Shown here piece by piece: positions 1,977-63,940 of a stretch of 64,000 nt of DNA (its first letter is position 1; every line of letters starts with the position of its first letter). Both the position numbers and the translations under genes were made by a program. Under the pieces are notes generated by a model. That model saw only the letters and a program-made list of their open reading frames with translations. It did no database searches and had not been told where the DNA came from. Source of the DNA: Brugia malayi (Eukaryota; Nematoda; Chromadorea; Rhabditida; Onchocercidae); NCBI RefSeq assembly GCF_000002995.4, contig NW_025062475.1, positions 3,316,528-3,380,527 on the forward strand. Direction: 5' to 3'.

Positions 1977-4900
1977 TTGTTTGAGAGCGTTAATCAAATT
2001 TTGTTATGCTCAAAAAAAGAAGAAGAAAAAGTTTTGTGTTTGAAATAACAAACAACATATGATCATTTAGGCTTTTTTTCCATTTCTATTTTCTGCATTG
2101 CCTCATTTCCATTCTTTTTCTTTTTTTTTTTTTTTTTTTCATAGTTTTTTCTGATAAAAAACTTTCAGTGTTATACAATTGCACTTTTTCAGGCAAATTT
2201 TCAAGGTTTTCCATTTTTTTTTTTTTTTTAAATGATCTAGCAAAATTTCATTTGCTAAAAATTTATTTCATTATAATGTCATTGGAATACTGAAAAATGA
2301 AAGGAAATTTTTGCCTTTCAGAATTACCTTTTACTCTTACATTAATGAAAAAAAAAAAAAGTTTTTAAAGAGCTGAAATATAAATGAAATAATCATACCA
2401 TATTATTAAATTTTATTTTGTTAAAGAATGAATTTATTTCATTTCAAAATAAATTTTTAATTTCCAAAAAAAAAAATATGATGTTTTTTTGTTTGTTTGT
2501 TTTTTCTTTTCTTTTTGTCATATGAACAATTTGCTTAGAATGATAAGAAAATGATAATATGGTTTAGAGGATCAAACGGAAGAAATATTTCATTTCATTG
2601 CTCAAAATATCATTCTATCAAATTTATTCATTTTTTTTCTTGCATTTACAATTGTGGAATAAATCGTTCTTTTTTTCTTTTTTTTTTAGTGAATTCTCAT
2701 GAATCTTTTCTTACTACACATTGATGATTGTGATTTTGTGACATCACAAGCATTTATCGTCATCTGTTCTAATTTTCTATTTCAAATTTTTGAAATGACC
2801 TTCTTCTTACGGTTTGAATGCTTAATATATGATTTGAAAATGTTAAGTTTATGCAAGAAAATTATTCCACTTTTGGTTGATTAGCAATTTGTACAAATCA
2901 TATGAGTGAAAAAGAAAGATTAAATTACCATCACATTTTTTTTTTTTTTTTTTTTAATCAAAACATATGGCAATAATTAAAATTGTCCATTTACTAATTA
3001 TTATTGTTGTATAATTATTTCTATTATGTTAAATTCAGTAACAAAAAGGAGGAGTAATTATGACAAATGCGCTAAATGGTAAAATGTATTAGATTTTTTT
3101 TTTTTTGAAAAAGATATATGATTATCTGATTTTCGATTGAAAGACCGGTTAAGATCACTTTTAATATCTTTTTAGCGTACCACTTTCAAATTTTGACAAC
3201 AAAAAAAAGAAAAAAAAATGCCTCATTTTGGGCGCTCTTTTCTATTCGTAATGTATGGCTGAATTATTGCATACTATTTTCTAATTTTTACTAAGAATTG
3301 TTTGTTTTTCTATTCTTCCTACTATCCATCCATTCATCGTTTAGAAAAGTGCGTCTCTTCAAATTACACTGTAATTTCTTTAAACTTTAAATTATAAAAA
3401 TTAACAGTGAGGCAAAAAGAAAAAAAAATATATATATATATTGATGCAAAAATTTGCCTCAAGCTATGACTAAAAAACATATTAATATTTGATACGTTCA
3501 TACTGAAATTTAATTTGAAAAATTCCATTCAAAAAAAAAAAAGAAAAAAAACTGATGAGAAATTTTACAGTTAATAGAATAAAAATTGAGAATTAATAAG
3601 TGAATCTGATGAAGCAAGAGAAATATTTCGAATTATTCTGTAGCAGTGAAAAGATAAATGATGCGACAGATTTGAGAATATTTGTAGTGAAATTCCTTCT
3701 TAACCTATTCATCAGGAAATTAGGACTTTGATTATTATGACTAAATTCTTTACATTTTTATATATGACAATAACAAATTACTAAAGAAAAACATAATTAT
3801 TTATTGCTAATAGCTCAAAATTTTCAAAGTAAAAAAAAAAAAACTTAAAAAAAAAACTGAAGAATGATTAATGGTAGATAAAAAAGTAAAATTAGTAATA
3901 AAGTTACTTAATTGATTTTCATTTCAATTTACAATGTACAACAAAAGTTACTAAATTGTATTGTTTTAAGTTAAACAGTAAGAGAGAAATGGTCACTCAA
4001 ATTGACACTCTATCATGTCATTATAATTTATATTCTCGACTTTTATTTCTCGATGTCTTCATAATATCCGTTTCATAGAACTCTAGTTATCATTATCATA
4101 TCATTTCATTAGTAATCTAATCGATGAATATTATAAGTAGTAAACAAGGAATATAATTTGATCTATTATCGAACTAAAGTAGCTATGTGATCAGTCAAAT
4201 TATAAGAAATCATATATGTTGAGCTAATTTAGAATTTTTAATTTAAAAAATTTTCGGATGGATATGTTAGAAATTTCTAATTTAAAAAATTTTCAGATCG
4301 ATAATTTTTTTGTAGAATGTCATAAAGGTTACACAACTTTTATATCTATCGATAAAGCACGTAGAGAATTAGCAAATAATATGCAAATTAAGTTATTCCT
4401 CAGAATATTCACCGTAGATTCCATAGTTCTAGATGATCTGTGATAAAAAAAAAAGAAAAAACTATTTGCTTATCGTAGAATAATGGGAAGAGAAAATTAT
4501 ATTTTGCATAAACTATAAGATAGTTTTATTCATTTTATATTTGGGCAATTTTTTTCTTTTCTAAAGGTAAATTTGCTACTTTTTCATGCACTTCTTCAGT
4601 TAAATCTATTTTCTTCCTTAAACTTTATCAAAATTTAGGCTTTTCTTTTGTTGAAATGTTAATTCTAAGTGACAAAAGCAGAAGATGTTTTTTAATAATT
4701 AAATTTTAAAGCTATTAGATTTTGGGTAATTGTGACTAATAGGAAATCTAGGAGTTCAGAGAAATATGCTAGAAATGAAATGTGTTAGAACTTTATTTCA
4801 ATTATTCCTGAAATTTTGGTTGTCTGTTTGAAAATTTGCAGATTTTTTTTTCCTTTTTCTTTTTTTGACTAAGATTAGGGCATATTATTACTTTTAATAT

Positions 4901-18500: not shown

Positions 18501-21500
18501 ATAACAACCAAAAAGTGCTAAATATATTCTGTGTTAACATATCATAATTAAATGAAACTCTCTTAAATAATAATTTCAATTGTATCATTGTAATATCATT
18601 TGTTTAATTTAGTGATAAATATTTTGAGTGCTTCAGATGGCGCAAATATGATGATTTAATGATAGAGGAAGAGACAGATGATTATCATATTCAATTTGAT
18701 GGAATGTATGATGGTTCATTGTATTCATTTCGTATTTTAGCAGTGGATGATCAACTTAAAGTAGCTGCTAAAACAACTGAGGTTTTTAAATTTTTTTTTC
18801 TTTTTTTAAATTAATTAGTGATTAAACAAAGAAAAAAATTTAAGTGTATTATTTAGAAATCATTTTCTTTCCTGTCTTTTTTTTTTTCTGTTTGATATTT
18901 TATTAAATTTTAGATTACGGTTGGATCAGCAGCGTCTAGCTCCTGCGTTGGTGACGCTGGTATCCCGCAAAACGTACGTACCAGCGCCGTATCTGAAGCA
19001 ACTCTTCAGTTTACGTGGGAGAAGCCACGTTGTGATGAAACATTTGGACCAATTGATGGTTATGAATATACGGTTGCAGTTTATTTAATTTTCTAAATTT
19101 TCTCTTTAATTAATTTAAGTGTAGTTTAATTTGAAAAATGAATTCTTTTTTTTTTCTTTTTTCTATCATCAAGGAATAGGAAAATTTAATATGTGATTGT
19201 ATAAAAAGTAAAACTTTTATAAGTAAAAAATATAATAAAGTTTTTTTTTTTTACTTTATTATAAAAAACATTAACTTAATTTTTTTTTTTTTTATTATAA
19301 ATGGTTATTATAATTGATTGATTTTCATGTAGAAATATGCTTTATTTATTTATTTATTTTTTTTTTTATCATTTATTTATTTTTTTTTTTTTAATTTATC
19401 ATTTATTTGTTGAATTCCTGTGGAAAAAATGAATATTGCTTTTAGTTTTGGAGTATAGAAACAGATATGCAACCTGAAACCGCATCATATGTTGGACGGA
19501 ATACCATAGAATTGGATGACTTAAAACCGGCTACACGTTATGCATTCCGAGTTCGTTCACGTGCTGGACACGGACATAGTTCATGGAGTGAGATTGTGAA
19601 TGCTGAAACAGAAGCACATTCAGGATCAAAAGGTAAATTTTAAAAATTTTAAATTAATAATAATATCTTTTAATTAATAATAATATTACACTAATAATGC
19701 AAATCAGTTTTATCTTATCAAAAAAAAAGCAATCATAGATATATTTGAAATTTTATGAATGATTATTGTTATTTTTGCTATATAATGCATAAAATGCATA
19801 AGTTTGACATTATTATAAAATTTTTTTTTCTTTTTACTTCAACAAACACATCGCAGATTTTATGACATTTTTTTCTCGTTCTGTTAGATTATGCACTTTC
19901 ATTGATCAAAAAGAAAAAATGTGTTTTCACATATTAATCTTTGTAAAATCATCGAAAGTTTACGCTAAATGACGTACGTCAGTCGTTTTTATCAGGTAAA
20001 AGCTATTTTATATTTCTATTCCAATATGATTTCTATTTCTCTATGTTCAATTTGCTTTTCTAACTAATATTTCAATAATTTTCTGTCACTTTGGAGATTG
20101 CTTATAGTATCAATTTTAACTTTTTTTAATAACTAATTTCACGTCACACAAACATGCTTAAAACTTCTTTAGCTATGGTAAACAGGTGTAATAGTTAAAA
20201 CTCTTCGTCCGCTTTTTTTTTTTTCATAACTTTTAGGAAATTGTCTCTCTCTCTCTCTCTTTAGTTTTCTAATAATATTTTTTTTTTACTATTTAATGAG
20301 GCTGTATATTATTGTAGTGAAATTTGAAATAGATTTTAAAAAGCAATGAAATCATCAAATTTAAGACGATTCTTTTAATATTGTTATTTAAAGAAATATT
20401 CATTAAGGTAAAATGCTTTACTTACTTTTAATCAAATGTATTAAGGTAAAATGCTTTACTTACTTTTAATCAAATGTATTAAGGTAAAATGCTTTACTTA
20501 CTTTTAATCAAATGTATTAAGGTAAAATGCTTTACTTACTTTTAATCAAATGTAATGCCTTCAAACTTTAACTTTTTGAATGTAAAATGACGAAGTGTTG
20601 TCATTGTGTCACATAATTTTGTTTTTTGTTTTTGTCTGTTGATAATGCTATTTGTTCTTTTTTAACTTTATAGTAAAACTAACATTTAGTATCCACCAGT
20701 AATGGCAATTCTCGTCGATATCACTATCAATCACAATTAACCACAAATAACCCATTATCATTTCATTCAATGTTACACGAAGTACCAACATTTGCACTTC
20801 TTCGACGTTTTAAACGGCAACAAAAAAATCAAATTACAGGTAATTTAAGGTAAATTATACAGTGAAAATGTAATGTTAAAAGTTTAACGAAGTAAAATTG
20901 AAATATTTGCCAATTAATTCTTAAATAAATGTTAGTAAAACGCTTTTTCTATCCTAATTTTATGTAAATTACATAAATTTGTTTTTTTTTTTCTTCAACT
21001 ATGTCTCTCCCTCTCTTTCTCTTCTCTTTTGTCTTTTCATATTTATTCTCTCTCTCTTTCTCTCTCCCTTTTGTCTTTTTATAGTGAAAAAAAAATGTAA
21101 ATTGTTATTTAATTAACAAAAAAATGAGCATATAGCGTATATAATTCACATTACTGATAAAAATATCATTTCATTGCTTTTTTTTTCATACTTTGGTAAT
21201 TAATAATAATTTAATAAAAATACAATGTATATAATTATTGCCTGAAGAATTCAATTTCAAAATTGCCAAAAAATTATTTCATTCCATTACCAATTATCTT
21301 TTAAAGAAAAATTTTAAATGATAATTGATAAGAGAAAATTTTTGATAGCAAAAGAAGAAAGTAAATTGTTATATGAAAAAGTAATAGTATAACTTTTACT
21401 TTCACTCTCTCTAATTTTATCATTTCTTTTTTTATTAGCTATGATAATATTTCAGATGATCATAATATCTATCAACTTCGTATCATTTTGGCACCACCAA

Positions 21501-24500
21501 AATCATACCTAGCTTGGACACCATTACCTGAACATGCTGAAGAAATTGTTAAATTCAAGTAAATTAATTTTCCTTCTATTGTATGCTCTTTCTCTCTTTA
21601 TTAGATGTATTTTATTTAAATTAACATTTTTGTATTGAAGTGAAAGTATTACTACTACTACTACTACTGCTATAGAAGTTTGTTGAAATTTCTTGATCTG
21701 ATCAAAATTTATTTTAGATTATCATATAAAAAGAGTGCTGGTGATCAATGGACACGTATCATCGAAATACCGGAATATTTCAAATGTCCAGAAGGAATTG
21801 CTGATCCGGAAGATTATTGCTATGATTTATCCAAACTTTCATTCGGTATACAATACACTGCTGATGTAAGTTAGAATTTCTGTTGCATGTAAAGAGAGAG
21901 GGAGAGGGAGAAAGAGAGAGAGAGAGAGAGTGTCGTAATTCTTTAACTTTTTTTATTAGTACATAAATTGGAAATTATTTTCAATAATTTCAGTTAATAT
22001 ATGAAATAGAAAATGGTGAATGGACAGCACATGGCAGCCCATTATTCTTCATCCTTGTTGAAGCTGGTACCATTTATAATTTCCATGTCTAATCACATTT
22101 GACTTATACATCACCGCCCGGCGCAATTCTGTTTCATGTTACGCATGCAGTTTCGTTTATGAAAAAGCATGCAATGCTATTTGTTTCTGCTATTTTTTTT
22201 TTCTCTTCTTTTTTTGTTTTTCACTTTCTCAATGTAAACAAGAAATACTTTTCCAACAATAAAAAAAAAAAGGAAAAGCATGCCTTGATGTAGTTGCAAT
22301 AGTAAAATTTTGTCCGTCCCCTTGGTGCTTTTTTTTTTCTTTTTCGAAATTTTTTTTTTTGATAAAAATTCCAATCTACGATGCATTATGAAATAGATTT
22401 CAAAATTTGTGAACCACAGATGAAAAGGATGCTTCGGATTATTTGTAGATTGTTCTGTGGTCCATTTCAGGGGAGCCATCTGTGCCGACATCACCGCACA
22501 ATCTTCAGATCAATCCTCATGATGCATCAAGTATTGAGCTTCATTGGTTACCACCCCTAAACTCGAAGCATATTCCTTTTTATCAGGCACCATTTTCTCT
22601 ACTTTTAACTTTTCATTTTGCACAAATACTATTTTGCATGATTTATACATGTTCCTTCTTGCATATTTTCTGAATCATTTTGATTCATTTTGGGATATTT
22701 TGGGATACTTTTATCAAAAAGTTATTATTTGTTTATATCACAGATGAAAGCACTCTTTCCCTAGAATTATGCACAAGGCATTATAAAAAGAAAGGAAAAA
22801 AAGGAAACCAAATCTAAAATTAGTCGTATTTTGTTAATTAGTTAATTAGTCGGTTCAATTTAGATTGAAATAGAAGATCTGCATACAAGGAAAGTACGAA
22901 CTGAACAGGTACCAGGGTCATTTTTTTCCTCTATCCTTAGTCAACTATCACCATATTCCATTTATAATGTTTCTGTTCGTGCTGGAACCGATTTTGGTGA
23001 ATTAGGTGCACCTATATTCAAGGTTATTTCTTTACAAGGTAACAAGGATGACAAATTGTCACATCATTTATCGGATGAAGAAGACAGATTGAAACAACAA
23101 CAAATTGAACAGCAAAAACAAATGAAAATGAAAGAAGAAAGTGAAAGGAATAAATTTGAGAGAGAACAAATAGAGGAGGAAGAACGGAAACGGAACAGAA
23201 TAAAAGAATGTGAGCGTAAAAGATTGCAAATGGAATATGATAGGTTGAATAGGGAACGTGAGCGTAATCGAGTCACGTATAAGCATGAACGTCCACGTGA
23301 ACATTTAAAATATGAACATATCGATCGAGCAACGGAGCAAAAACAGGAATATGAGCAAACGAAACAGCAACAATACTATGAACGTCAACAACAGCTCGAA
23401 CGTGAACGTATGGAATTATATCAACGGCAACAATGGGAAAGAGAACGTGAACAATGGGAAAAGGAACGTGAACGTAATCATCGATTGATTCATCAACGAC
23501 AAGAGCATGACACGGAACAAAGGCGGAACTCAGTAGCAAAAGAAGAAAATATTGAAGGGGAAGAGAAAGAACGTTTAGAATTGGAACAACAACAACTGGA
23601 TCATATTCAGGTGTTACCGGAAACAAATAACAGACGAGGTGAGAGGACGTAACAACGAACTATGCTGACACGTGTGATTGCTAACAACGTTTAACAAGCG
23701 TGAAATATGAATAAACTTGAGTGTTTCAATAATTTACTACAATGACAAATATTTTTCATCTTTTATTCGATGACATACGTTCATCAAATCTCATCCACTT
23801 TTCTATTCTTTCATAACTTATAAGTAAAGGTGTACTTTCTGTTGAAAAATGTTTTAATCAAAGTGTGACAGTAAATATTTGCTTATTTATTGCATCACTG
23901 CATGCATGCTTAAGTATTTTCTCTATCGCTGCATGCTTATTTGCACATTTTTGCATGCTTTTACACAAATTTGACATCTTTTAATTTATTAGAGTTTTTT
24001 TTTTTTTTTTTTTGTGTGTGATAAATTTTGCTATCAATTTAGACTAATTTAAGTGAAAAAAAAAAAAAGCAAATTAATTTCATTTTGAAATTATTTATAT
24101 AAATAAGCTAAAAATAATTTACTTAGGTGACATACAAAAACCACTTCTTGGTATTGATAAACCACGTATCGAGCAACGTGGATCACGTATTCTGCTATAC
24201 TGGACCGTCGGCGGTGATACGTCAAATGTAATAGCATATCAGGTTTGTTGTAATTTTTTATGAAAATTATTTACAATTCTTACAAGTTCATTGTGCAAAA
24301 TTTTATTGGAATACCAATCACTCATTTGTTATTTAAATAATCAATATAGCCTTTTACCTTATTAATTAATATTAATTTTAAAACAAAGTTAATAAAATTT
24401 CAGTTAACAGTCAAGTTTTCTTTTTTTTTTTGAATTTTCAGATTGATCTTCGTTCAGATTCAGATAATGAATGGAAAACTATTGATGGTTACCTGTCTCA

Positions 24501-26612
24501 TTCACCGTCAGAAATTCATTTTCGACAGGAATTAATTAATTTAGAAACTAATAAACATTATTACGTTAAAGTCTCAGCTATTGATCAATCACGACGCATT
24601 CTTGCGACATCAGAAGCGACAAGTTTTACTGTTCATTGCCAAGGTATATATATTTCTTTGCATTTGTGATATTATCTAGTAAAAATGCTCTCAGAGTATT
24701 CTGTAATGTTCAAAATGCACTTTCACTTTAAAATCACTAAATTTAATTAATTTAACTATATTCTAAGTCGAAAAGCAATTCTATGCATCAAATATTTGTA
24801 ACTTCATTTTGTCTCTTTCACAGTTAATTGTTTAAAATTTCAATATATTAGGTATTTAATTTTAACATAACTTTATCATTATAGCAATAATTTTTTCAGT
24901 GCCTAATAGCTCACCTCAAGATTTACGATTGGAAAATGTAGCGGAAGGAATTCAACTTACCTGGAATTGGTCAGATGAAGAGAATCATGAATGTGAATCA
25001 TATTTTCTAATAACAGGATACCAAAATGGTGTACCATTTTCGGAACGAGTTACGGGTAGGCAGCGTCAATTTACTTTCCGGAATACAAACGCTAACGAAT
25101 GGCATGTGGAAATGCGTGCTGGAAATCGTGCCGGAACTGGACCCAGTAGTGGTCCTGTAAATTTGCAAAGTAATTCAAAAGGTATTGTTCAATTCATATG
25201 ATGTTATGATGATTTTTGCAGAATTTTTTAGCGTTTTTGGCTCAGTATAGTTTTTTTTTTTTTTTTTCTATTTCTTAACTGTAGGAAAAATGGAGTAATT
25301 ACTGTTAAAAATAGAATAATTAAATTTTAAACTTGATTAGATCATTTTCTAATCGTAGAGGACGATTATGAATTATGTGATATTAGTAAGAGACAAAAAT
25401 TAATTAAGATTAACGATTTGTTTAAAACTAATTAATCAATTAAGCATTAATGATTTGTTTAAAATATTCAATCTTTAACAATTTATTATACTTCAGTTTT
25501 CTATTTGTATTTATATGCAATTCAATTGTCAATTTTTAGTCTATGCTCATTCAATTTACTAAAAAAGTTGTTAAATTTTGATTGTAAAATTTTGATTTCT
25601 TCTCAGTTATCAATCCTAATCTTTGATTATTTGATGATTTGCTAATAGTCTTTTGATAATAGGTTATTTTTGTATAACATCTCGAAATTAAACAGTAATC
25701 GTTTTTTGTGTAAACAGAAAGACAAATTAAAATTGTAGAATTAATAAGAGGAACAAGTAGATAAGACAGATAAATGTTAATAGTAGAAATATTATCTTTT
25801 CAGTGATTAGTATGTAATCATAACATAAAAAGTAGATAACATTAGAAAATTGAGATTTATCAAACAAAGTTACTTTTCTAATTATTTTTCTATCTCTTTC
25901 ATCCTACTCCAACAATTCTAAAGCTATATGTGAATGAGAAGAAGCAATGATATCTTCCAGTGATTTTAGCGCTTATTGTCATCATTAAGTCATTTGTCCC
26001 CTTTCCAGTATCCAAAGGTCTTCGTGTTCTACGTAGCATCTGTGATCCACGTGTAGATTTCTGGTGTCGTTCACCGGATGAAACTTACGAAGTTGCTATA
26101 TCTCGTCATCCTAATGAAGGTTTGATTACGTGTGCTGTGGCGTGTCACCTTGATATTATGTTCGCTCCTCTTATCCTATGTTTAAATTAAATAACTTCTT
26201 ATCCTAAGCAATCACCTTTCTTTTTTTTTTTTTTCACTAGAATTGCAATTTTTTTTTAATTTTAATTTTGTTTATTTTTTGCATAACTCGAAATAATTTA
26301 TTCAATACTGGCTTAATTGCACTAATTAGTGCTCATCCATAAATTAAGCACTTTATTTTTATTTATTTAATTGTTTTTCTTTTTTTTTTTAGTTCTGATT
26401 ATGATAAAGCATTCATATCATTTGATAAGGAAATACAATATAAGCTGTATAACCCATTTAACATTTAAATTATCCATTCCATAGTGCTGCACTGATTCAT
26501 CATTATGAAGCAAATGACTTACTGATATGTTATCATTTATTTTTACCAGTTGTGATAATCAAATTTTTGCGATTCCTATGATTTCATTTCTGTTCTTGAA
26601 AATTTTTCGCCA

Positions 26613-62390: not shown

Positions 62391-63940
62391 ATGAGCACCA
62401 AGTCAATGATTGGTATTGCAACGGCCAGTTGCGCCTGTATCATTGTCATATCAATGGTCGCTGTTTGTGTAATATTTAATGAAATAAACAATTTGCATGA
62501 CGATGTTATGGATGAAATGGGCGTCTTTAGAGTTAGTAATTTTATGAATGTCAAATTTCTAATTTAGATTTTCATTTTTTTGTTGTTTTATTTGTTTTAC
62601 AATTTATAGCAAGTTTATTTAAGAATAGAATTAAGAAAATGTTAATTATTATGTATTTCGTTTTTTTCAAATAACCATTATCAAATTTGAAATGTGATAC
62701 TATGATAATAGCTATTGAGAATTCATGCGCAAATGATTATGTTTACCGCTAGATTATTTGATCATTTACAGTATTATAAAAAGTTTAGAAGTAGATATAT
62801 GAAATACTATTAGATGAATTAATTAATTATGATAATTTATGAGTATATGATAATTAAGAAGGATCAAATTCAATATTCTTTCAGACAGTTGCAGATGATA
62901 CTTGGGAAAGAATAGTAATGCTTCACTTTGGTCCAGGTGGTCGTCGACAAGAAACATTCTCCTCTTTGATTAACCGATACAAACGACAATTCATTCCACC
63001 ACCACATTGTCGTTCGTTTTCAACTTTTAACATTAAATCAATAAAACAAAGGAAAATTGAATTAAGCCAAGATTGATTTTTTCTTTAAATTCTAGAAATT
63101 ATTTGGAGATCAGTTCCATTCAGAAATGTGCAGTTTGGATAAAATGATAAAATTTATTATAGAATGTCAAGCGCCAGAATTATGTCCACCGGGACCACCA
63201 GGACCACCAGGTGATAAAGGTCTAAGAGGTATTGATGGACCGATTGGCAACGATGGTAGAGACGGTGCCAGTGGTGTATCACTGTTAGCGACATATCACT
63301 TTCCTGGTGGTTGCATAGAATGTCCTCCGGGACGACAGGGACCACCTGGACCTAATGGTTTAGAAGGAGATTATGGAGCCACAGGACGTCGTGGATCACT
63401 TGGAATACCGGGTAAAAGTGGACAACGTGGACCAGTTGGACCACCAGGTGAAATGGGTGAACCAGGACCTGATGGAGCACCTGGAAGGCCAGGATCACCA
63501 GGAAGAGATGGAAAGCGAGGCATTGGACCACAAGGACCGAAAGGACCAACTGGACCAAGAGGACCACCAGGTTTGCCAGGTCCGGATGGAAACAGAGGTG
63601 CCGATGGTGAACCAGGAGAACAGGGAATGGAAGGACGACGAGGAAATGATGGTAGAAAAGGCAATGATGGACGTCCTGGAGCGGTATATTTGACATTTTT
63701 TTTTAAGAATTTTAAAATTACTTAAATTTTTTACATTGCTGTTCTTTTTAAAATGTTTAATGATGTATCATCACATTTAACTTTTTATGGATAAGTAAGA
63801 TATTGTTTCGTTCTTCCACTTGACAACTTCATAATTAGCATATAATATTTTAGCTTGGTAGGCCTGGTCTACCAGGACCAGATGCTCATTACTGCCCATG
63901 TCCACCACGAAGTTCAGCTTACCTAACGAAGATACATTGA
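62391..63940 (+). CDS. Nematode cuticle collagen
   Basis: Four exons (62391-62531, 62885-63011, 63163-63683, 63854-63940) give 291 aa, the usual size of nematode cuticle collagens. Residues about 8-33 are a hydrophobic signal anchor. NRYKRQF supplies the R-x-x-R site cleaved by subtilisin-like proprotein convertases in this family. CQCQAPELC opens a short Gly-X-Y block ([12 protein letters not shown]...), CIEC opens the main block, and YCPCPPR closes it, so the three cysteine clusters flanking the triple helix are present. KRGIGPQG breaks the Gly-X-Y phase once. Exon 2 must end TGTC|GTTCGT to recreate the CQC motif. ATTACAG lies 7 bases before the ATG, fitting spliced-leader addition. The stop is 60 bases from the window end and no poly(A) signal is seen. 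The subfamily is not assigned. Confidence 0.9.

What the first reader, a model, noticed from the sequence alone, without database searches (positions are those of the whole stretch)
23039..23638. Optional 200-residue charged helix inside the FN3 ladder, framed by two same-phase donors
Seen: exon 16 leaves FN3 sequence and stays open for exactly 600 nt of Glu/Arg/Gln-rich coding. Donors CAAG|GTAACA (23038) and CGAG|GTGAGA (23638) are both phase 1 and both join exon 17 (24127) in frame. Known: FN3 receptors of this kind are mainly beta-sheet ladders, and E/R-rich single helices are usually cytoplasmic. Inferred: alternative 5' splice-site choice toggles a long rigid or coiled-coil spacer in the extracellular part, which could change reach or dimerisation of a mechanical linker. 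Mixed synonymous codons argue for protein-level selection rather than repeat slippage.
Basis: partly seen in the sequence, partly recalled or inferred. Interest (0 to 1): 0.75.

Follow-up and report, generated by a model that had tools for sequence, protein, structure and literature searches.

The report
Charged helix inside filarial attachment protein
Filarial worms carry a roughly 200-residue, highly charged, probably rod-like stretch inside a giant protein that anchors muscle to skin; it is real coding sequence found in several filariae, but the idea that a choice between two splice sites switches it on and off does not fit at least two of the other species.

Summary
In detail: exon 16 of a Brugia let-805 (myotactin) gene stays open for 200 codons past the end of FN3 domain 7. 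In-frame read-through after the other 56 modelled donors is at most 49 codons (median 6). The insert is in 6 of 6 filarial protein records that span the site, and in a 7th, unnamed one. A core, RIKECERKRLQM, is identical in the Brugia, Cercopithifilaria, Setaria and Loa records. AlphaFold (one sequence only) gives helices of 72 and 100 residues; charge pairing is in excess and there is no heptad seam, so it looks like a single alpha-helix, not a coiled coil. Donor choice is not supported as a shared mechanism: a phase-1 donor at the proximal codon cannot be encoded in Loa (Asn) or Setaria (His), and the distal donor is far stronger. Best reading: a filarial linker expansion, read with exon 16, acting as a stiff, extensible spacer in a tension-bearing tether. 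If optional, skipping of exons 15-16 together (FN3-7 plus helix) is at least as plausible: it is in frame, exon 15 has a conserved GC donor, and Parascaris has records with and without FN3-7. No RNA data were available.

The parts
21994..22066 (+). exon 14, ends in phase 1 (GCT G|), would join exon 17 in frame if exons 15-16 were skipped
   Evidence: gene model; exons 15+16 = 116+775 = 891 nt
22471..22586 (+). exon 15, first part of FN3 domain 7; donor is GC (CAG|GCACCA)
   Evidence: the frame past it stops at 22671-22673; matches Parascaris P0047 without a gap, by eye
22864..23038 (+). FN3 part of exon 16 (rest of FN3 domain 7)
   Evidence: FN3-7 at model residues 689-771, i-E 3.8e-14
23039..23638 (+). 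charged 200-codon insert (E/R/Q/K-rich), the finding
23039..23044 (+). intron side of the proximal, putative donor CAAG|GTAACA; cannot be encoded at this codon in Loa and Setaria
23197..23271 (+). conserved core RIKECERKRLQM..DRL..ERERNR, with the only Cys of the insert; absent from the Dirofilaria record
   Evidence: alignment
23639..23644 (+). intron side of the distal donor CGAG|GTGAGA, among the strongest of the gene
23650..23652 (+). in-frame TAA shortly after the distal donor; the unnamed filarial record P0053 ends with the same ...RGERT
24127..24242 (+). exon 17, start of FN3 domain 8, accepts either donor in frame
20690..20839 (+). exon 11 with furin-like motif RFKR|QQKN, upstream of the segment
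26009..26119 (+). exon 20 with RVLR|SICDPRVDFWC, R-x-x-R form of a furin-like motif that is R-x-[KR]-R in many nematode LET-805 records, downstream of the segment
46787..46895 (+). exon with the hydrophobic segment WPWWWLLLLLLLLLLLILLTCCLLWCL, taken as transmembrane; the insert lies far N-terminal of it
   Evidence: about model residue 4220; by eye

Best explanation
The insert is a filarial expansion of the linker between FN3 domains 7 and 8 of LET-805/myotactin, carried as a 3' extension of exon 16. It is most likely translated whenever exon 16 is used. It forms a long, salt-bridged single alpha-helix (broken once in Brugia at a proline) that adds about 25-30 nm to the ectodomain at rest (0.15 nm per residue, my arithmetic) and more under load. 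In a protein that holds epidermis to basement membrane and muscle, it would act as a stiff but extensible spacer. Shown here: coding status, presence in several filariae, composition, lack of a hydrophobic seam, predicted helix. Inferred: constitutive use, monomeric helix, mechanical role.
For: Read-through 204 codons against a next best of 49. Insert in P0002 (B. pahangi), P0003 (C. johnstoni), P0004 (Setaria), P0005 (Loa), P0006 (Dirofilaria) and P0050 (B. timori), 6 of 6 filarial records that span the site, plus P0053, an unnamed record that is filarial by similarity. Core identical in the Brugia, C. johnstoni, Setaria and Loa records while the rest drifts. Two ascarid species (P0007, P0047) have about 30 extra residues at the same place, so a longer linker may be older than the filarial form. 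Proximal donor codon impossible in Loa and Setaria. AlphaFold helices 68-139 and 148-247 of P0001, 10-residue means mostly 90 or more, 127 residues at 90 or more. Charge-pair excess z 2.6, reached by 7 of 2000 shuffles; no window with 5 or more of 8 a/d hydrophobics, GCN4 control 7 of 8. 37 FN3 domains and a C-terminal hydrophobic segment. LET-805 sits at epidermal attachment structures and its ectodomain is made of FN3 repeats (PMC5887144, passages). [quoted passage not shown]
Against: The orthologue records are gene models or mechanical ORFs; a predictor includes an open frame whether or not it is spliced out. They are representatives of 90% identity clusters (P0002 stands for 30 sequences) whose members I did not see, so an isoform without the insert could be hidden. 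The proximal donor is ordinary in strength (above 34 of 57) and codon-compatible in Brugia, C. johnstoni and, by eye, P0053. Other phase-1 donors near the site are not excluded in Loa (best possible score 2.94 seven residues on) or Setaria (1.58 seven residues before, 1.4 fourteen residues on). In human genes with several transcripts, 319 of 396 such helix domains are absent from at least one transcript (PMC5812594, section 6). AlphaFold was run without an alignment, left the known FN3 part of the same chain at pLDDT about 40-50, and may favour helix for E/R-rich sequence, so disorder is not excluded. E-to-K/R i+4 pairs alone are not significant (216 of 2000 shuffles reach the value). The Dirofilaria record lacks the core and has a tandem repeat instead.
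Confidence: 0.6

Rival explanations
1. Alternative 5' splice-site choice within exon 16: donor 23038 gives a short form, donor 23638 a form with the helix.
For: Both donors are phase 1 and join exon 17 in frame. The proximal donor scores above 34 of 57 donor scores. It is codon-compatible in Brugia and C. johnstoni (best possible score 3.88) and, read by eye, P0053; Dirofilaria could have one a residue later (best possible 2.11). Such helices are often optional in human transcripts.
Against: Impossible at the aligned codon in Loa and Setaria. Distal donor much stronger. 0 of 6 filarial records that span the site lack the insert, though these are models and cluster representatives.
Confidence: 0.17
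2. The helix is optional as part of a cassette: exons 15 and 16 (FN3-7 plus helix) are skipped together, exon 14 to exon 17, perhaps regulated through the GC donor of exon 15. Not exclusive with the best reading.
For: The 891-nt skip keeps frame, both borders phase 1. Parascaris has two records, P0008 without FN3-7 and P0047 with it. FN3-7 is also absent from 3 Caenorhabditis records (P0013, P0017, P0019: 3 domains in the interval against 4). GC at this donor is implied in the Loa, C. johnstoni and Setaria models, which read YQAPF through it. GC donors are tied to regulated splicing, as in C. elegans let-2, and of 26 C. elegans GC-AG introns only 5 had a GC-AG counterpart in C. briggsae (PMC2490688, passages).
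Against: The Parascaris and Thelazia models without FN3-7 may be prediction errors. The GC donor could simply be slow to change. None of the filarial records seen has the skip.
Confidence: 0.25
3. Intronic polyadenylation: retention of intron 16 ends the protein at ...RRGERT and makes a secreted N-terminal fragment ending in the helix.
For: Stop shortly past the distal donor; P0053 ends with the same ...RGERT. AATAAA at 23710.
Against: AATAAA occurs 148 times on this strand of the window, 2.3 per kb, so one here is unremarkable. P0053 starts inside exon 16 and looks like a mechanical ORF call. A kept donor GTGAG already explains Gly-Glu. The search for shorter relatives (485-1,530 aa or so) returned no filarial protein.
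Confidence: 0.05
4. The segment is a disordered charged linker, or a disulfide- or coil-linked dimer, not a monomeric helix.
For: Cys in the core of four genera; dimerisation or multimerisation of LET-805 has been proposed (PMC5887144, passages). AlphaFold on one sequence may be biased to helix.
Against: No heptad seam; i,i+3/i+4 charge pairing above shuffles; helix blocks mostly at pLDDT 90 or more.
Confidence: 0.25

Closest known systems
LET-805/myotactin (C. elegans transmembrane protein of epidermal attachment structures)
   Same: FN3 ladder (37 domains here; 36 in C. briggsae P0013 by the same profile, 35 of them at i-E below 0.01; 32 + 4 reported for C. elegans in PMC5887144), one hydrophobic segment near the C-terminus, orthologues across nematodes
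   Different: an extra FN3 (number 7, absent from the Caenorhabditis records looked at) followed by the charged helix
Single alpha-helix (SAH) domains, e.g. myosin 10, INCENP, CAF-1 KER
   Same: 50% charged, E/R/K-rich, i,i+3/i+4 opposite-charge pairs, no hydrophobic seam, long predicted helix between folded domains
   Different: extracellular by position and Gln-rich (28 of 200); monomer state and published SAH score not tested
Giant5 of Apilactobacillus kunkeei (PMC12863079, passages)
   Same: an extracellular protein with beta-sheet domains followed by a predicted very long single helix
   Different: bacterial, helix about 2,000 residues, authors think it may be di- or trimeric; no homology claimed
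C. elegans let-2 intron 10 with GC donor (PMC2490688, passages)
   Same: GC-AG intron next to a possibly regulated exon in a nematode matrix or attachment gene
   Different: regulation here not shown

Membership tests
LET-805/myotactin | long FN3 array | tested here: met
   37 domains in the model at i-E below 0.01, with a home-made profile seeded from this protein
LET-805/myotactin | single transmembrane segment and cytoplasmic tail | tested here: met
   WPWWWLLLLLLLLLLLILLTCCLLWCL at about model residue 4220, tail follows; by eye, no predictor run
LET-805/myotactin | signal peptide | tested here: inconclusive
   B. pahangi P0002 and Setaria P0004 start with a hydrophobic leader; the first exon of my model is not trusted
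LET-805/myotactin | sequence orthology across nematodes | tested here: met
   38 of 45 hits are nematode records, Trichinella included at 2e-209; the 7 others are at 1.8e-19 or weaker; no tree was built
LET-805/myotactin | location at epidermal attachment structures | not testable with these tools
   needs imaging in the worm
Single alpha-helix domain | rich in charged residues with excess i,i+3/i+4 opposite pairs | tested here: met
   50% charged; net pairs 26 against 0.4 +/- 9.8 in shuffles, 7 of 2000 reach it; E to K/R at i+4 alone not significant, 216 of 2000
Single alpha-helix domain | no hydrophobic heptad seam | tested here: met
   no 28-residue window with 5 or more of 8 a/d hydrophobics
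Single alpha-helix domain | continuous stable helix | tested here: inconclusive
   AlphaFold without alignment, helices of 72 and 100 residues; not measured
Single alpha-helix domain | monomeric in solution; published SAH score | not tested
   scoring matrices of PMC5812594 not in the text read; monomer state needs bench work
Coiled coil | heptad repeat of hydrophobic a/d residues | tested here: not met
   best window 4 of 8, mean of shuffles 4.9; GCN4 control 7 of 8
Alternative 5' splice-site event | two same-phase GT donors in this genome | tested here: met
Alternative 5' splice-site event | proximal donor kept in orthologues | tested here: not met
   impossible at the aligned codon in Loa and Setaria; possible in C. 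johnstoni and B. pahangi
Alternative 5' splice-site event | junction reads for both forms | not testable with these tools
   no RNA data held

The most novel reading that the evidence does not exclude
In filariae an extracellular single-helix module with a conserved Cys-containing motif (RIKECERKRLQM) was captured into the tension-bearing LET-805 tether, sits between two furin-like motifs, and is included or left out together with FN3-7 through a conserved GC-AG intron, so that worms tune the reach or lateral association of their muscle-skin anchors by stage or tissue.
Probability: 0.12. Interest if true: 0.75.

Novelty: new variant of a known kind. Interest (0 to 1): 0.5.

Why it matters
LET-805 attaches the worm's epidermis to the matrix over muscle, and its activation has been proposed to involve lateral association of its ectodomain (PMC5887144, passages). 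A natural insertion of a long charged helix in that ectodomain, kept in several filarial genera, is a ready experiment on how length and stiffness of the tether matter. I made two searches for extracellular or alternatively spliced single-helix domains (1 paper; 15 of 120 papers listed); the only extracellular long single helix I noticed in those listings was bacterial, which is a thin basis for calling it rare. A record named 'Myotactin form B, putative' (Bm1_53510) was among the listed top adult excretory-secretory proteins of B. malayi (PMC2569413, passages), though I could not show that it is this gene.

Tried and rejected
Rejected: chance open frame; a classical coiled coil; a copy of another gene in this genome (one match only, best candidates scored only); simple repeat slippage as the origin (the tandem repeat scan finds a 21-nt unit in 2.1 copies, a 16-nt unit in 2.6 and a 6-nt unit in 4.3 inside the insert; Dirofilaria does show tandem growth). 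Pfam (on P0001) and PDB sequence searches (on P0001, on the insert) gave no hit. A fold search was not run because a lone helix matches too much. The first refinement of exon 15 was off by one base and gave stops; corrected. My first script of orthologue anchors matched wrong FN3 repeats in several distant species, so absence in those was judged from the sequences around PRIEQ and from domain counts and is not claimed for every species. Uninformative records: P0051 (Wuchereria), P0052 (Onchocerca ochengi), P0054 and P0055 (Gongylonema) do not reach the insert; P0009 (Thelazia) lacks FN3-7 in its model. I made no search for DNA of other filariae: genome contigs is prokaryotic, viral contigs viral, and the metagenome cap was 0. 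Hresko et al. 1999 was not read (known through PMC5887144). Papers seen: PMC5887144, PMC2569413, PMC3617236, PMC12863079, PMC2490688, PMC4183817, PMC7704054 as passages; PMC5812594 as passages plus sections 6 and 14; others as search listings.

Full report
What was checked. The frame that starts at 22864 is open to a TAA at 23650. It leaves FN3 sequence at 23038 and continues for 200 codons to a second donor at 23638. Both donors are phase 1 and both join exon 17 at 24127 in frame. I made a gene model of the whole locus with a home-made splice and codon model: 58 exons, 4,787 residues, a hydrophobic segment taken as transmembrane at about residue 4220, and 37 FN3 domains by a profile seeded from this protein. 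The first exon and some small exons of that model are not to be trusted.

Is it more than chance. For each of 57 modelled donors I counted in-frame codons before a stop. The value is 204 here, then 49, 42, 38; the median is 6. With the stop frequency of this gene's modelled introns, 200 open codons has a probability of about 9e-8. Donor scores by a hand-made matrix: proximal 1.67 (above 34 of 57), distal 4.67 (above 55 of 57).

What the protein is. The first protein search gave 45 hits, 38 of them nematode records, from Brugia to Trichinella; the other 7 are weaker than 1e-18 or so. The window is 99% identical to the B. pahangi record in the compared part, so it is a Brugia. C. briggsae (P0013) has 36 domains by the same profile (35 at i-E below 0.01) and lacks FN3-7, the domain made by exons 15 and 16. 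The insert sits between FN3-7 and FN3-8. C. elegans gain-of-function alleles lie in repeats 9+10 and 14+15 of that protein's numbering (PMC5887144, passages); if my count matches theirs, that is downstream of the insert's position.

Conservation. The insert is in the B. pahangi, C. johnstoni, Setaria, Loa, Dirofilaria and B. timori records, 6 of 6 filarial records that span the site, and in P0053, which starts in exon 16 and ends at ...RGERT just like the Brugia frame. RIKECERKRLQM is identical in the Brugia, Cercopithifilaria, Setaria and Loa records; P0053 keeps MKECERKRLQ; the Dirofilaria record lacks it and has a tandem EEQKRRQQ-type expansion instead. Window-to-orthologue identity in the insert, over aligned residues: 196 of 200 (B. 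pahangi), 122 of 180 (C. johnstoni), 87 of 153 (Setaria), 104 of 150 (Loa), 68 of 178 (Dirofilaria); over 42 residues of left FN3 flank 42, 35, 32, 36 and 31. So the insert drifts faster than the FN3 flank except for its core. Toxocara P0007 and Parascaris P0047 have about 30 extra residues, with Cys and Pro, at the same place. A longer linker may thus be older than filariae, the charged helix being the filarial form, as far as these records go. Each record stands for a 90% identity cluster whose other members I did not see.

Test of the toggle. A phase-1 donor needs a codon NGT, so the residue must be Arg, Gly, Ser or Cys. At the aligned place Brugia and C. johnstoni have Gly, Loa has Asn, Setaria has His. 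A donor at that codon is impossible in Loa and Setaria. Dirofilaria could have one a residue later (best possible score 2.11). Donors further off are not excluded: in Loa up to 2.94 seven residues on, in Setaria up to 1.58 seven residues before and 1.4 fourteen residues on. These are the best scores any synonymous coding could give, from protein letters, not DNA. The toggle may exist in Brugia, but a donor at this place is not shared by all filariae.

A second way to be optional. Exons 15 and 16 together are 891 nt and flanked by phase 1 on both sides, so the unit FN3-7 plus helix could be skipped. Parascaris has one record without FN3-7 (P0008) and one with it (P0047). Exon 15 ends in a GC donor: the frame after it stops in Brugia, the FN3-7 sequence across it matches Parascaris without a gap by eye, and the Loa, C. 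johnstoni and Setaria models read through it as YQAPF, so GC is implied in all three. GC donors have been linked to regulated splicing in nematodes, and only 5 of 26 C. elegans GC-AG introns had a GC-AG counterpart in C. briggsae (PMC2490688, passages). This is a lead, not a result.

Structure. AlphaFold on P0001 alone gives helices at 68-139 and 148-247, with a break at HERPREH; the proline is absent from Loa. The same run left the FN3 part at pLDDT about 40-50, so it says little beyond the helices. Opposite-charge pairs at i,i+3 and i,i+4 exceed shuffles (z 2.6), E to K/R at i+4 alone does not (z 1.4), and no 28-residue window has a hydrophobic seam. There are no N-glycosylation sequons in the insert; the rest of the ectodomain model has 24, about 1.2 per 200 residues, so this absence is weak. 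The simplest reading is a single alpha-helix domain. Such domains act as connectors and constant-force springs (PMC4183817, passages; PMC5812594, passages and sections 6 and 14).

How it likely works. Muscle contraction pulls on the ectodomain. FN3 domains resist; a charged single helix would extend first, at low force, and refold. The insert would thus set slack and reach of the tether. That step is inference from the anatomy and from other proteins.

Limits. All orthologue evidence is protein records, mostly gene models. No RNA, no peptide and no DNA of other filariae was used. The single most useful test is counting four junctions in existing filarial RNA data.

Noticed in passing
window 26009-26119 (exon 20) and orthologues: A furin-like motif directly before a CDP..DFWC block in nematode LET-805. 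The block was found in 33 of 48 records scanned (the window included): 19 have R-x-[KR]-R, 13 have R-x-x-R (filariae, ascarids, Gongylonema, Necator), 1 neither. In print: 'cleav' does not occur in PMC5887144, and a search for let-805 with furin listed 5 papers that I did not open.
   Followed up: partly
window 20690-20839 (exon 11): A second furin-like motif (RFKR|QQKN; RVKR|QAKH in C. briggsae) upstream of FN3-6: 13 of 26 records with the WTP block have R-x-[KR]-R there. It is missing from the Toxocara, Parascaris and Dirofilaria models, so the exon may be optional.
   Followed up: partly
window 22587 (intron 15): GC-AG intron, conserved by implication in Loa, Cercopithifilaria and Setaria, whose models read through it; the B. 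pahangi and Dirofilaria models avoid it by other joins.
   Followed up: partly
Parascaris P0047 against P0008: Two records that differ in FN3-7 and in the exon with the CDPRTDFWC block; suggests alternative splicing of this region in ascarids, if the models are right.
   Followed up: partly
cytoplasmic tail, model residues about 4311-4425: Four copies of a GY..GFRDG-type repeat in the tail (DGYVRGFRD, EGYVKGLRD, SGYMQGFRD, TGYIDGFKE); the same pattern finds two in C. briggsae P0013 and two in Cylicocyclus P0020, none in the B. pahangi record P0002.
   Followed up: no
window 63096-63722: A collagen-like Gly-X-Y open frame, from its look a collagen gene; not checked against a family library.
   Followed up: no
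B. malayi literature, PMC2569413 and PMC3617236 (passages): A record named 'Myotactin form B, putative' (Bm1_53510) is among the top adult excretory-secretory proteins listed and is also in a table of proteins recovered with a Wolbachia surface protein; whether it is this gene was not shown.
   Followed up: partly
Dirofilaria P0006: The insert has grown by tandem repeats of about 8 residues (RRQQIEEQK type) while the core that other filariae share is absent from the record.
   Followed up: no
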